From Aureibaculum flavum (GTDB taxonomy: Bacteria > Bacteroidota > Bacteroidia > Flavobacteriales > Flavobacteriaceae), in NCBI RefSeq assembly GCF_016406085.1, contig NZ_JAEHFJ010000004.1, forward strand, positions 186,001 to 250,000: 64,000 nucleotides of DNA, given 5' to 3'. The notes under the pieces are model-generated. The model worked only from the letters and a program-made list of their open reading frames with translations, ran no database searches and was not told the origin of the DNA. Below are positions 29,919-33,762 of this stretch, piece by piece. A program made the position numbers and the translations under genes. Numbering within the stretch: position 1 is the stretch's first letter; every line of letters begins with the position of its first letter.

Positions 29919-30314
29919 ATGAAAAAAGTAGAAGTAGTTGCCGCTATTATAAAATGTAATAAGGAAATTCTTTGTGTTCAAAGAGCCGAAAATTCATTAG
30001 AATATATATCTAAAAAATTTGAATTTCCTGGAGGTAAGATAGAAAAAGGTGAATCAAAGAAGGAAGCTTTGCAACGAGAGCTTTTGGAAGAATTAAATAT
30101 TACAACAAATATCAAATCTTTATTTCTTACAGTAATTCATGAATACCCAGATTTTGAATTAACAATGCACAGTTTTATTTGTGAAGTTAAAACAAAAGAA
30201 CTCACTCTAAATGAACATATAGCACAAGAATGGTTAACATTAGGAAACCTTGAAAACCTTGATTGGGCAGCCGCGGACATTCCAATAGTGAATAAATTGG
30301 TAAACAATGGATAG
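29919..30314 (+). CDS. NUDIX hydrolase, MutT-like
   Basis: This 131-residue protein is a MutT-type NUDIX hydrolase. The complete Nudix box G-G-K-I-E-K-G-E followed by R-E-L-L-E-E-L starts at about residue 38. The N-terminal V-V-A-A-I-I-K and the F-E-F-P-G-G-K are typical of (deoxy)nucleoside triphosphate pyrophosphohydrolases. The length matches MutT. Its last eight bases overlap the helicase gene start, so the two proteins are made together. Similar NUDIX genes are known beside DUF3427 helicases, which suggests clean-up of damaged nucleotides, or of a signal nucleotide, for that system; the actual substrate is unknown. Confidence 0.88.
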   Translation: MKKVEVVAAIIKCNKEILCVQRAENSLEYISKKFEFPGGKIEKGESKKEALQRELLEELNITTNIKSLFLTVIHEYPDFELTMHSFICEVKTKELTLNEHIAQEWLTLGNLENLDWAAADIPIVNKLVNNG

Positions 30315-33300
30315 AATTACCGAAATTTTTAATACTAGTTTACAAACAGGTTATGTAGATAGAACTATTTTATCAAATGTTGATTATCAACCTGAATTAT
30401 TGGTAAATCAGAAAAACCCGCCTAAAAAAGTTCTATCCACTATTATTCATGAGCTTGAAAATTGCAATCAGTTTTTTATTTCTGTTGCCTTTGTAACAAC
30501 GAGTGGAGTAGCAACCATAATCAATAAGTTGAAAGAACTCGAAAACCGCGAAATTAAAGGCGAAATTTTGGTCTCTCAATATTTAAACTTCACACAACCA
30601 GAAGCTTTAAAAAGATTAAAGCAGTTTAAGAATATAGACTTAAGAATTGCAACAACTGGCAATGCACATGCTAAAGGTTATATTTTTAAAAATAAAGAGC
30701 ATTATAATTTAATTGTTGGGAGTAGTAATTTAACGGCTCAAGCATTATCTACTAACAAGGAATGGAATATTAAAGTCTCAGCCTTAGATGAAAGTGGTTT
30801 GGTTGAAAAAGTTCTTAATGAATTTCATTCAGATTTTGAAAAAGGAACAACAGTAACTGCAAAATATATTGCCTCATATGAAGAAATATATAAGAAGCAA
30901 TTTTTTTCAAACAAAAAATATAATCTTGAAAACTTAATTCAACCCCAAACTGTTATTACTCCAAATTCAATGCAAATTGAGGCACTGGAAAACCTAAAAA
31001 TATTACGGGCGAAGAAAAAGAATAAAGCATTAATAATTTCTGCAACTGGAACAGGTAAAACTTATTTATCTGCTTTTGATGCAAAGGCTTTTAATCCAAG
31101 AAAACTATTGTTTGTAGTTCACAGATTGACTATTGCAAAAGATTCATTAAATACATTTAGAAATGTTTTTGGAAAGTCTGTAACTATGGGATTATACTCT
31201 GGTGAAAAAAGAGAACTGGATTGTGACTTTGTGTTTTCAACTATACAAACAATTTCAAAGACCACTCACTTAGAAAATTTCTCAAAAAATCATTTTGATT
31301 ACATAATTATTGATGAAACTCATAGGTCAGGTGCAGATTCTTATTTACGATTAATTGATTACTTTGAACCTAATTTCCTTTTAGGAATGACAGCCACTCC
31401 AGAAAGAACAGATGGGAATGATATTTTCAAACTATTTGACCACAATATTGCTTATGAAATTCGACTAAACAGAGCAATGGAAGAAGAAATGCTTAGTCCG
31501 TTTCATTATTATGGAGTAACCGATTTATTAATTGATAATAATGTGGTCGATAATAAATCTGATTTTAAACTATTAGTTTCTATTGAAAGAGTTAATAGGA
31601 TAATTGAGCAGGCAAATTTTTACGGTAGTGATAACGGTATTACTAGAGGTTTAATATTTTGTTCAAGAAAAAACGAAGCTATTGAACTTTCTAATTTATT
31701 AAATCTAAAAGGATATAGAACTATAGCCTTAACTGGTGATAGTACAGAAGAAGAAAGAGCAAAATCAATTGAAAAATTAGAATCGGATAATTTAAGTGAA
31801 AAACTCGATTACATTTTTACAGTTGATATTTTTAATGAAGGTATTGATATTCCAAAAATTAATCAAATAATTATGCTACGCCCTACGGTATCTGCAATTA
31901 TTTTCATTCAGCAATTAGGCAGAGGATTACGAAAAATTGAAGGAAAAAGCTATGTAACCGTTATAGACTTTATAGGAAACTATGAAAATAATTATTTAAT
32001 TCCTATTGCATTATATGGTGACACTTCTTATAATAAAGACTCTATAAGAAAATTAATTACTGAAGGCAGCAGAATGATTCCTGGCTCCTCAACTATTAAT
32101 TTTGATGAAATCACCAAAGAAAAAATATTTCAATCTATTGATTCTGCGAAAATGCAGTTGTTGTCGGATTTGAAAAAAGACTATTACCTCTTGAAATTCA
32201 AGTTGGGTAAAATTCCAATGATGATGGATTTTATAGAACATGGCTCAAGAGATCCTTATTTATATGTAAATTATTCTAATTCATATTATAATTTCATTGT
32301 AAAAGTTGAAAAGGAATTCAACGAAAAACTATCTACAGAACAGGTTAAACTTTTAGGGCTTTTTTCTAAAGAAATAAACAACTCTAAAAGAGTTGAGGAA
32401 AGCTTAATAATCAAATTATTAATTGAAACTGGCACATTGTCCATTAATACTTTGAAAGAAAATGTTTTAAAAAAATATCATTACTACATTTCTGATGAAA
32501 CAATTAAATCATGTGTTTCAAATTTAAATTTTGAATTCATTAGAGAAAAAAGTAACGGTAAATTGATTTCAGCAAAAGAGATATACAAATTAGATATAAT
32601 TAAAATTGATAAAGGTAGTTTTGTTTTTTCAGAAGTATTTCTTTCATACTTAAATCAAAACTCTTTTAAAAGCTTTCTACTTGATTCAACCAATTATTCC
32701 ATAAATAAATTCGACAAATTATTTGATTCTAAACTTTGGCATAATGGATTTGTACTGTATAGAAAATATTCTCGTAAAGATGTTTTTAGAATACTAAATG
32801 TTTCGCAAAATCCAGTAGCACAAAACGTGGGTGGATATCTTGTAAATCCCGACAACGCTCATTGTCCAATTTTTGTGAATTATCATAAAGAAGAGGGGAT
32901 TTCTGAATCGACGAAATATGAAGATGAATTTGTAAATAATAAAGAATTTGATTGGATGTCAAAATCTAATCGTAAAATTGATAGCAACGATGTTCAATCT
33001 ATTCTGGGTAAAAATGGGAATATTCGACTTCCATTATTTATTAAAAAGAATAATGACGAAGGACAGGATTTCTATTATATGAGTGATGTTTTACCAGAAT
33101 TAAATCAGGTTGAACAAACCACGATGAGTAATGATAAGGGTAAGCAAGTTTCGGTTGTGAAAATCCGTTTTAAATTAGCAAGTCCAGTACGTACAAGTAT
33201 ATATAACTATCTACAAGAAAAAGGAGGTGCTACCATTTCCAAAACTTTAGAGAAAGTAATAGTATCACCATCACAACAAACTATTAGTTTTGAAGAAGAA

Positions 33301-33762
33301 CTAAAAAATCCTATCCCATTATATAATTTTTATGCAGCGGCAGGCACGTTTAGTGAGATTCAATCGGAAAAAGATTTCACTTTAATTGAAGGCCCTGTAA
33401 ATCACAATGTCAACAGTAATTATTTCGCTTGTAGAATAGTTGGAGAATCAATGAATAGAGTTATTCCAAATGGTTCAATTTGTTTGTTCAAACCTTATAC
33501 AGGAGGTAGTAGAAATGGTAAAATTGTATTAGTGGAAAACCTAGATATTCAAGACCAAGATTTTAATTCAGCTTTTACAATAAAGACGTATTCAAGTGAG
33601 AAATCTGTTTTGGAAGAAACTTGGGGACATGAATCTATTGTTTTAAGGCCAAATTCGTTCGACAATTCTTATAAAAATATTATTATCACTGAAGAAAATG
33701 CTTCCGAAATGAGGGTAATTGGAGAATTTGTTGAAATTTTGATCGATGATAAAGAAGAATGA
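30307..33762 (+). CDS. PLD nuclease-SF2 helicase-DUF3427 protein with a C-terminal S24 (LexA/UmuD-like) peptidase domain
   Basis: This 1151-residue protein has four parts. Residues 1-190: a phospholipase D-type domain with A-H-A-K-G-Y-I (His121, Lys123) and G-S-S-N-L-T (138-143), as in BfiI-like nucleases. About 215-570: an SF2 helicase, with Walker A A-T-G-T-G-K-T (246-252), D-E-T-H (336-339), M-T-A-T-P-E-R (361-367) and motif VI Q-Q-L-G-R-G-L-R (about 535-542). About 600-965: the DUF3427 region that normally follows such helicases. About 1000-1151: an S24 peptidase-like domain, with Ala1012-Gly1013 as the expected cleavage bond in I-P-L-Y-N-F-Y-A-A-A-G, the nucleophile Ser1048 in V-G-E-S-M and Lys1093 in F-T-I-K-T. 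PLD-helicase-DUF3427 proteins are known and tend to occur with defence genes; the S24 tail is unusual to my knowledge. The start overlaps the NUDIX gene by 8 bases. Confidence 0.88.
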   Translation: MDRITEIFNTSLQTGYVDRTILSNVDYQPELLVNQKNPPKKVLSTIIHELENCNQFFISVAFVTTSGVATIINKLKELENREIKGEILVSQYLNFTQPEALKRLKQFKNIDLRIATTGNAHAKGYIFKNKEHYNLIVGSSNLTAQALSTNKEWNIKVSALDESGLVEKVLNEFHSDFEKGTTVTAKYIASYEEIYKKQFFSNKKYNLENLIQPQTVITPNSMQIEALENLKILRAKKKNKALIISATGTGKTYLSAFDAKAFNPRKLLFVVHRLTIAKDSLNTFRNVFGKSVTMGLYSGEKRELDCDFVFSTIQTISKTTHLENFSKNHFDYIIIDETHRSGADSYLRLIDYFEPNFLLGMTATPERTDGNDIFKLFDHNIAYEIRLNRAMEEEMLSPFHYYGVTDLLIDNNVVDNKSDFKLLVSIERVNRIIEQANFYGSDNGITRGLIFCSRKNEAIELSNLLNLKGYRTIALTGDSTEEERAKSIEKLESDNLSEKLDYIFTVDIFNEGIDIPKINQIIMLRPTVSAIIFIQQLGRGLRKIEGKSYVTVIDFIGNYENNYLIPIALYGDTSYNKDSIRKLITEGSRMIPGSSTINFDEITKEKIFQSIDSAKMQLLSDLKKDYYLLKFKLGKIPMMMDFIEHGSRDPYLYVNYSNSYYNFIVKVEKEFNEKLSTEQVKLLGLFSKEINNSKRVEESLIIKLLIETGTLSINTLKENVLKKYHYYISDETIKSCVSNLNFEFIREKSNGKLISAKEIYKLDIIKIDKGSFVFSEVFLSYLNQNSFKSFLLDSTNYSINKFDKLFDSKLWHNGFVLYRKYSRKDVFRILNVSQNPVAQNVGGYLVNPDNAHCPIFVNYHKEEGISESTKYEDEFVNNKEFDWMSKSNRKIDSNDVQSILGKNGNIRLPLFIKKNNDEGQDFYYMSDVLPELNQVEQTTMSNDKGKQVSVVKIRFKLASPVRTSIYNYLQEKGGATISKTLEKVIVSPSQQTISFEEELKNPIPLYNFYAAAGTFSEIQSEKDFTLIEGPVNHNVNSNYFACRIVGESMNRVIPNGSICLFKPYTGGSRNGKIVLVENLDIQDQDFNSAFTIKTYSSEKSVLEETWGHESIVLRPNSFDNSYKNIIITEENASEMRVIGEFVEILIDDKEE

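What the first reader, a model, noticed from the sequence alone, without database searches (positions are those of the whole stretch)
29919..33762. NUDIX hydrolase fused by overlap to a PLD-helicase-DUF3427 protein carrying an S24 peptidase tail
The large gene appears to combine a PLD-type nuclease (His121/Lys123), an SF2 helicase, DUF3427 and a LexA/UmuD-like S24 domain in one chain, and is coupled to a MutT-like NUDIX gene by an eight-base overlap. PLD-helicase-DUF3427 proteins are known; I am not aware of one with an S24 peptidase tail. Such an arrangement would allow DNA-damage-triggered activation or release of a nuclease-helicase, and the NUDIX gene would handle damaged or signal nucleotides. 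A defence or repair function is inference.
Basis: partly seen in the sequence, partly recalled or inferred. Interest (0 to 1): 0.82.

Follow-up and report, generated by a model that had tools for sequence, protein, structure and literature searches.

The report
Restriction enzyme with LexA-like tail
A bacterial enzyme of the kind that shreds foreign methylated DNA carries a LexA-type tail that looks able to cut itself, and sits next to an enzyme whose relative destroys methylated DNA building blocks; both look like safety devices that could stop the nuclease from attacking its own cell.

Summary
Residues 1-970 of the large protein are a SauUSI-type (type IV, 5-methylcytosine-dependent) restriction enzyme; a low-confidence linker and a LexA/UmuD-fold S24 domain with Ala|Gly site and Ser-Lys dyad follow. 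A NUDIX gene accompanies 75 of 78 assessable SauUSI-like genes, tailed or not, in several phyla. A member of that NUDIX clade (B. fragilis, PDB 3gwy) hydrolyses 5-methyl- and 5-hydroxymethyl-dCTP near the diffusion limit (published kinetics): the bases SauUSI attacks in DNA. The S24 tail is independent of the NUDIX link and portable: it also ends GIY-YIG/Schlafen-helicase, another Schlafen-helicase type, type I HsdR and HNH proteins (18 of 395 Bacteroidota, 8 of 369 gammaproteobacterial genomes). SauUSI enzymes perhaps gained it twice. In 52 of 54 tails the site reads xAA|G, so cleavage would leave an ssrA/LexA-like end. My model: two anti-autoimmunity devices, a nucleotide-pool guard (NUDIX) and a DNA-damage-triggered self-inactivation fuse (tail). 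Architecture and identity are well supported; NUDIX substrate is inferred by clade; tail cleavage and its direction are untested. My literature searches, of one open-access library with partly capped listings, showed no description of tail or pairing.

The parts
29919..30314 (+). NUDIX hydrolase, 131 aa; PADLOC candidate family PDC-S07; predicted 5-methyl/5-hydroxymethyl-(d)CTP pyrophosphatase
   Evidence: Pfam NUDIX 57 bits; PDC-S07 155 bits; 49.6% identical over 127 aa to the 130 residues of PDB 3gwy printed; in the clade of NUDIX rows from SauUSI-like loci that also holds 3gwy; 3gwy kinetics from PMC5158307
30307..30314 (+). 8-base overlap of the two reading frames
   Evidence: same overlap in 16 of 26 tailed loci
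30307..33762 (+). SauUSI-type type IV restriction enzyme with C-terminal S24 tail, 1151 aa
30448..30831 (+). PLD-type nuclease domain (residues 48-175; H121-x-K123, GSSN 138-141)
   Evidence: Pfam PLDc_2; residues invariant in 34 rows
30955..31407 (+). SF2 motor, first RecA-like domain (residues 217-367)
   Evidence: Pfam ResIII; aligned to SauUSI
31633..31932 (+). SF2 motor, second RecA-like domain (residues 443-542)
   Evidence: Pfam Helicase_C
32362..33213 (+). DUF3427 = SauUSI coupler (part) plus SRA-type target recognition domain (residues 686-969)
   Evidence: Pfam DUF3427 257 bits; residues of the proposed SauUSI 5mC pocket map to Y844, F856, V857, D873, W883
33223..33297 (+). variable, low-confidence linker (residues 973-997)
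   Evidence: pLDDT below 50; unconserved in the alignment
33313..33741 (+). LexA/UmuD-fold S24 tail (residues about 1003-1145)
   Evidence: Pfam S24; model and Foldseek; tail profile
33340..33345 (+). predicted self-cleavage bond Ala1012|Gly1013 in FYAAA|GTF
   Evidence: xAA|G in 52 of 54 tails
33448..33450 (+). predicted catalytic Ser1048 (GESM)
   Evidence: Ser in 53 of 54 tails
33583..33585 (+). predicted catalytic Lys1093 (TIKTY)
   Evidence: Lys in 54 of 54 tails

Best explanation
It is a two-gene restriction module with two built-in protections against self-attack. (1) The large protein cuts DNA that carries 5-methyl- or 5-hydroxymethylcytosine, as SauUSI does: the SRA domain recognises the modified base, the SF2 motor translocates, the dimeric PLD nuclease cuts (inferred by homology). 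(2) The NUDIX enzyme hydrolyses 5-methyl-dCTP and 5-hydroxymethyl-dCTP, so that modified cytosine released from destroyed DNA or made by a phage is not built into host DNA, where it would be a target (substrate inferred from a measured clade member; role inferred). (3) The S24 tail is a LexA-type self-cleaving fuse: when the cell's own DNA is broken, RecA-ssDNA filaments trigger cleavage at Ala1012|Gly1013; the nuclease is left with a C-terminus ending -YAAA, which resembles the ssrA tag, and is cleared by ClpXP or otherwise switched off. Shown: architecture, kept residues, portability of the tail, gene pairing. Inferred: cleavage, RecA dependence, direction of the switch, ClpXP.
For: Core; pocket residues against passages of PMC7913695. 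NUDIX: upstream of 71 and convergently downstream of 4 of 80 core loci, absent in 3, not assessable at 2 contig ends (with my recount of L087 and L108); the 19 best NUDIX hits of the 395-genome sample (144.7 bits or more) all lie beside a PLD/DUF3427 nuclease, though 10 of the 19 are rows from which the profile was built; 3gwy falls inside the clade of 82 NUDIX rows from SauUSI-like loci, starred next to three of them, and hydrolyses 5-Me-dCTP at 4.8e6 and 5-MeOH-dCTP at 4.4e6 per M per s (PMC5158307); SauUSI cuts 5mC and 5hmC DNA (PMC3874153). Tail: fold; site and dyad kept except in broken genes; the same tail on five nuclease architectures. Direction: site xAA|G in tails and AAA|G in 12 of 14 HTH-S24 (LexA-like) controls, while P2 is Ser in 15 of 17 UmuD-like controls; tmRNA tag of this genome is GENNYALAA; HsdR is a known ClpXP target in restriction alleviation (PMC4231737, passages). 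PMC8565304 (passages) describes HTH-S24 proteins as LexA of Bacteroidetes, and this genome has an S24 protein of that build.
Against: I know of no cleavage, RecA or ClpXP experiment on a tailed protein. xAA|G may be inherited, not selected as a degron; this genome's own LexA-like HTH-S24 protein reads ASA|G, so the repressor-like reading of P2 is not strict. Cutting phage DNA may also make RecA filaments, so a fuse could disarm the defence during infection. Plasmid-induced EcoKI alleviation does not need LexA cleavage (PMC11109961), and the ClpX degron of EcoKI HsdR was not found by terminal mutations (PMC4231737). Most SauUSI-like enzymes lack a tail: 54 of 80 loci show none, at least two of them cut by contig ends, and one lineage probably lost it (L065). 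3gwy is as good or better on 5-Me-CTP (6.7e6) as on the deoxy form, so a ribonucleotide role is open; its genomic neighbours were not seen. The full-length model has pTM 0.47 and does not place the tail. RecA and ClpX genes of this genome were not searched for.
Confidence: 0.47

Rival explanations
1. The tail is an activation lock: it holds the nuclease inactive, and DNA damage during phage infection triggers self-cleavage that releases it (as UmuD is activated by cleavage).
For: Same residues; UmuD is among the fold matches; UmuD is activated by cleavage (PMC8565304 passage).
Against: P2 of the site is Ala, whereas 15 of 17 UmuD-like controls have Ser. The SauUSI core works as a single chain without any tail (PMC3874153), and the untailed near relatives L063 and L065 have a full core.
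Confidence: 0.22
2. The tail is not a switch but a protein-contact or dimerisation domain, for example one that docks the nuclease on RecA filaments or replication proteins.
For: S24 domains bind RecA (PDB titles); SauUSI is a dimer (PMC7913695).
Against: A pure contact domain would not need Ser, Lys and the xAA|G bond kept across 50-odd sequences of five architectures.
Confidence: 0.17
3. The NUDIX enzyme is an offensive partner that destroys the 5-hydroxymethyl-dCTP pool of phages, or a MutT-like cleaner of oxidised nucleotides, rather than a guard against self-restriction.
For: 5-MeOH-dCTP is as good a substrate as 5-Me-dCTP for 3gwy; MutT models score near NudG models.
Against: Removing 5-hydroxymethyl-dCTP would strip the mark that the nuclease needs; 3gwy is about 50 times weaker on 5-OH-dCTP.
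Confidence: 0.25
4. NUDIX and nuclease are merely neighbours in a mobile defence island.
For: Defence genes cluster (general knowledge); the same-genus genome G107 has no DUF3427 match and other genes after the PPIase gene.
Against: Pairing in 75 of 78 loci from Bacteroidota, Pseudomonadota, Bacillota, Cyanobacteriota and archaea, upstream and often overlapping, or convergent downstream in four Bacillota loci.
Confidence: 0.05

Closest known systems
SauUSI (Staphylococcus aureus type IV restriction enzyme, PDB 7clg)
   Same: Nuclease, motor, coupler and SRA domain over residues 1-969; residues of the proposed 5mC pocket kept
   Different: The match covers residues 1-951 of its 953, so SauUSI has no S24 tail; term searches in two papers (PMC3874153, PMC7913695) found no 'nudix'
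LexA / lambda CI / UmuD (peptidase family S24)
   Same: Fold, Ala-Gly bond, Ser-Lys dyad
   Different: Fused behind large nucleases instead of a DNA-binding domain; Ser-Lys spacing 45 here, 37 in LexA (S119, K156 in PDB titles); autocleavage untested
B. fragilis Q5LBB1 (PDB 3gwy), 5-methyl-(d)CTP pyrophosphatase
   Same: Same clade as the NUDIX partner, 49.6% identity over 127 aa
   Different: Its genomic context was not seen; in the passages read of PMC5158307 it is presented as a hydrolase of mutagenic nucleotides, without a link to a restriction enzyme
ClpXP restriction alleviation of EcoKI HsdR
   Same: A proteolytic brake on a motor nuclease; S24 tails also sit on HsdR
   Different: No degron was found by terminal mutations of EcoKI HsdR and plasmid-induced alleviation is not SOS-dependent; here the switch would lie in the protein itself
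PADLOC candidate PDC-S07
   Same: The NUDIX gene matches it (155 bits)
   Different: A candidate family with no description in that library

Membership tests
SauUSI type IV restriction enzymes | N-terminal PLD nuclease with HxK and GSxN | tested here: met
SauUSI type IV restriction enzymes | SF2 translocase motifs (GTGKT, DExH, QxxGRxxR; motif names recalled) | tested here: met
   T249-T252, D336, E337, Q535, G538, R539, R542 invariant in 34 rows
SauUSI type IV restriction enzymes | Coupler and SRA domain with the modified-cytosine pocket | tested here: met
   Y844, F856, V857, D873, W883 align with SauUSI Y831, F841, I842, D858, W868 (counted by hand on the printed alignment); SauUSI M829 is Gly here
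SauUSI type IV restriction enzymes | ATP-dependent cleavage of 5mC/5hmC DNA | not testable with these tools
   needs the protein
Peptidase family S24 (LexA/UmuD) | LexA C-terminal fold | tested here: met
   35 best Foldseek hits are LexA, CI, UmuD; best E 4.9e-6; model pLDDT 71.6
Peptidase family S24 (LexA/UmuD) | Ala-Gly (or Cys-Gly) bond and Ser-Lys dyad | tested here: met
   A1012|G1013, S1048, K1093
Peptidase family S24 (LexA/UmuD) | RecA-stimulated self-cleavage | not testable with these tools
   needs the protein
5-methyl-dCTP NUDIX clade of SauUSI-like loci | Nudix box catalytic residues | tested here: met
   E45, R53, E54, E57, E58 invariant in 10 rows
5-methyl-dCTP NUDIX clade of SauUSI-like loci | Tree position with the characterised member | tested here: met
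   (130 columns; bootstrap not settled)
5-methyl-dCTP NUDIX clade of SauUSI-like loci | Hydrolysis of 5-Me-dCTP | not testable with these tools
   measured for 3gwy only (PMC5158307)

The most novel reading that the evidence does not exclude
A general, portable 'restriction fuse': one family of LexA-type self-cleaving tails has been attached to at least five different nuclease architectures (SauUSI type IV, type I HsdR, two Schlafen-helicase types, HNH) and turns the cell's own DNA damage into destruction of the nuclease. It works together with dedicated nucleotide-pool guards, a 5-methyl/5-hydroxymethyl-dCTP NUDIX hydrolase for the 5mC-dependent enzyme and a MazG-like hydrolase for the Schlafen-helicase nucleases, which stop modified bases from entering host DNA.
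Probability: 0.33. Interest if true: 0.9.

Novelty: new variant of a known kind. Interest (0 to 1): 0.77.

Why it matters
How modification-dependent and motor-driven restriction enzymes avoid killing their own host is not settled; for EcoKI HsdR a 2014 study could not find the proteolytic signal (PMC4231737). A self-cleaving module inside the enzyme would offer an answer for a whole set of systems and can be tested with one purified tail and RecA. The NUDIX link ties a defence-associated candidate gene (PDC-S07) to published kinetics and predicts a new role for modified-nucleotide hydrolases: protecting the host from its own nuclease.

Tried and rejected
Rejected: that the PLD-helicase-DUF3427 chain is a new class (it is SauUSI-type). 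Rejected: that NUDIX and tail form one unit. NUDIX follows the core with or without tail, and the fetched stretches around the other tailed genes (L148-L159, L160, L169-L176) gave no match to the NUDIX profile at E 0.001. Not supported as far as tested: a phage origin of the tail. A viral-contig scan confirmed none of 39 pattern matches, three weak phage hits, two of them annotated as helix-turn-helix proteins, one plasmid hit, in a frame-broken Halomonas gene. Undecided: one or two origins of SauUSI tails. The careful tail tree puts L067, L068, L071 with GIY-YIG tails (95/90) and the core tree forces three changes, but the AU test does not reject one clade of SauUSI tails (p 0.287). Inconclusive: other phyla; 0 of 146 genomes in the phylum of the Prochlorococcus genome and 0 of 149 in that of the Bacilliculturomica genome gave a tail, without a positive control there. 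Inconclusive: 3gwy's own neighbourhood (86 genomes, found no copy closer than 52%). A suspected identity of L036 and L072 (equal contig lengths) was not borne out.
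Full report
Observation. The two genes are as described: NUDIX 29919-30314 and a 1151-residue protein 30307-33762, overlapping by eight bases. Pfam finds PLDc_2, ResIII, Helicase_C, DUF3427 and Peptidase_S24 in one chain, all above curated cut-offs, and NUDIX in the small gene.

What the core is. PADLOC's mREase_IV model matches residues 1-970 with 768 bits, and the only solved chain at E 1e-50 or better is 7clg, aligned over residues 1-969. 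Its length of 953 equals that of SauUSI in the structure paper (PMC7913695, passages); that 7clg is that structure is recalled. SauUSI is a type IV enzyme that cuts DNA with 5mC and 5hmC, needs ATP, and has PLD, SF2 motor, coupler and SRA parts (PMC3874153 and PMC7913695, passages). I mapped its proposed base-flipping pocket onto the window by hand on the printed alignment: Y831, F841, I842, D858, W868 correspond to Y844, F856, V857, D873, W883. In 34 aligned rows F856, V857 and W883 are invariant and Y844, D873 nearly so. M829 is Gly here. The core is therefore a member of a known kind.

The NUDIX partner. In these 80 loci the script counted a NUDIX gene directly upstream in 69, convergently just downstream in 4, none in 5, and 2 cut by contig ends. 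Two of the five 'none' are script artefacts: in L108 the NUDIX ends 8 bases before the core (a second helicase had shifted the start), in L087 it lies 307 bases before a core ORF that begins late. So 75 of 78 assessable loci have it; L105, L119 and L125 do not. The loci include Bacteroidota, Pseudomonadota, Bacillota, Cyanobacteriota and methanogens; the four convergent cases are Bacillota. Turned round: of the NUDIX hits in 395 genomes of the window's phylum, 30 were held as loci with 1.5 kb on each side. The 19 best (144.7 bits or more) and one at 143.5 lie beside a PLD/DUF3427 nuclease, the other ten (121.7-144.1) do not. Ten of the 19 are the rows from which the profile was built, so nine are independent. 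Part of them belong to a second, more distant DUF3427 group.

Its substrate. The nearest solved relative is 3gwy from Bacteroides fragilis (E 2e-52). Screened against 74 compounds, its best substrates are 5-Me-CTP (6.7e6 per M per s), 5-Me-dCTP (4.8e6) and 5-MeOH-dCTP (4.4e6), with 5-OH-dCTP about 50-fold lower; the authors report large standard errors (PMC5158307, abstract and passages). In a 105-row NUDIX tree, 3gwy lies inside the clade of 82 rows from SauUSI-like loci (100/93), starred beside the NUDIX of L042, L109 and L124 (99/86) (130 columns, bootstrap not settled). So an enzyme of this clade destroys the very nucleotides whose bases, once in DNA, SauUSI attacks. The simplest role is a pool guard that keeps modified cytosine out of host DNA. 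That role is inference.

The tail. Residues 1003-1145 fold as LexA/CI/UmuD. The full-length model gives a low-confidence linker at 973-997 and does not fix the tail's position. A profile of the tail found matches in 18 of 395 genomes of the window's phylum and 8 of 369 of the class of the Vibrio genome G395 (Gammaproteobacteria by its name), the weakest at E 1e-32 although the limit was 1e-12: a family apart from the other S24 proteins of these genomes. By protein, first sample: 6 SauUSI-like, 8 intact and 1 split GIY-YIG/Schlafen-helicase, 2 HsdR, 1 cut by a contig end. Second sample: 1 GIY-YIG/Schlafen-helicase, 2 Schlafen-helicase with another N-terminal part that I read by eye as nuclease-like, 2 HsdR, 1 HNH, 2 fragments. 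Pfam was run on one or two of each new kind (L091, L148, L170, L171, L157, L173), and L158 lies in an operon with HsdM and HsdS. In the intact proteins the tail is C-terminal.

Are its residues kept? In 54 tails the bond reads xAA|G in 52; the two exceptions are a split gene (L149) and a fragment with a stop (L175). Ser is present in 53 and Lys in 54 (two pairs of rows are the same records). Distances fit LexA: Gly to Ser 35 residues here, 34 in LexA (G85, S119); Ser to Lys 45 here, 37 in LexA (K156; LexA numbers from PDB titles).

Which way does it switch? Controls come from 41 genomes of the same family (30 loci held). Of 13 longer S24 proteins (244-339 aa; helix-turn-helix shown by Pfam for the three scanned), the type that PMC8565304 (passages) describes as Bacteroidetes LexA, 12 read AAA|G and one shows no site. 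The protein of that build in this genome reads ASA|G, against the pattern: 12 of 14 in all. Of 17 UmuD-like proteins P2 is Ser in 15, Ala in 1, Lys in 1. The tails are thus nearer the repressor type at P2, but not decisively; I lowered the direction from 0.45 to 0.4 for the ASA|G case. Cleavage would leave -YAAA; this genome's tmRNA tag is GENNYALAA. That LexA's fragment ends in a ClpX signal is recalled (Neher 2003, seen only as a reference). HsdR is cleared by ClpXP in restriction alleviation, with no degron found by terminal mutations (PMC4231737, passages), and plasmid-induced alleviation in E. coli does not need LexA cleavage (PMC11109961, passages). I favour a fuse that turns the nuclease off, at about 0.4 for direction and 0.65 for RecA-type cleavage at all.

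History. A tree of 80 SauUSI cores (29 tailed) needs three changes of the tail label, all forced by starred branches: most simply two gains and one loss (L065). The tails of L067, L068, L071 group with GIY-YIG tails rather than with other SauUSI tails (95/90), but the AU test does not exclude one SauUSI clade (p 0.287). All tailed SauUSI genes seen are from Bacteroidota or Balneolaceae records, or from genomes of the window's phylum.

A parallel. All ten intact GIY-YIG/Schlafen tailed genes seen have a MazG-like gene directly upstream (L152 and L153 are near-copies), and the three other Schlafen-helicase loci (L160, L170, L172) have one next to them (Pfam MazG-like shown for two). MazG-like genes also occur in seven loci of untailed SauUSI genes, in L065 next to an untailed Schlafen-helicase gene, so they go with that nuclease kind rather than with the tail. 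A nucleotide hydrolase beside a tailed nuclease is thus not unique to SauUSI, which fits the pool-guard idea and is untested.

Literature. DUF3427 occurs in two held papers, neither with the term S24. Searches for SauUSI with nudix or S24 (83 papers, 30 listed), SauUSI, type IV restriction and nudix (29 papers, 20 listed), six terms around the architecture (none), peptidase S24 with HsdR (2) and DUF2075, GIY-YIG, S24 and others (3) showed no description of the tail or the pairing in titles and abstract starts. PMC7159879 names both SauUSI and Nudix, in separate passages. Subscription papers and preprints were not searchable, so novelty is bounded by this library.

Noticed in passing
L148:7207-9740, L150-L156, L169, L091: GIY-YIG/Schlafen-g3-helicase proteins with the same S24 tail, each with a MazG-like gene directly upstream (10 of 10 intact loci).
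   Followed up: partly
L158:2838-11570: A type I operon (HsdM, HsdS, S24-tailed HsdR) that contains a PtuA/PtuB (Septu-like) ATPase-HNH pair between HsdS and HsdR.
   Followed up: partly
L171:7280-8956: An HNH protein without a helicase match that ends in the same S24 tail.
   Followed up: partly
L091:6604-12467: An untailed SauUSI plus NUDIX directly followed by MazG-like and tailed GIY-YIG/Schlafen genes in one run.
   Followed up: partly
L221-L230, L232: A second, distant DUF3427 nuclease group in the window's phylum also has a NUDIX gene next door.
   Followed up: no
L251:7773-12233: In the same-genus genome G107 the PPIase gene is followed by genes that look, by eye, like acetate metabolism, not by the NUDIX-nuclease pair; the pair looks like a variable insertion, but the exact empty site was not resolved.
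   Followed up: partly
L252:471-1247: The only other S24 protein found in this genome, by eye helix-turn-helix plus S24 (LexA-like) with an ASA|G site, is divergent to a gene that looks by eye like a DNA polymerase III alpha chain.
   Followed up: partly
window:33969-34586: HTH plus DUF4870 protein just downstream of the system, same strand; no evidence that it belongs to it.
   Followed up: no
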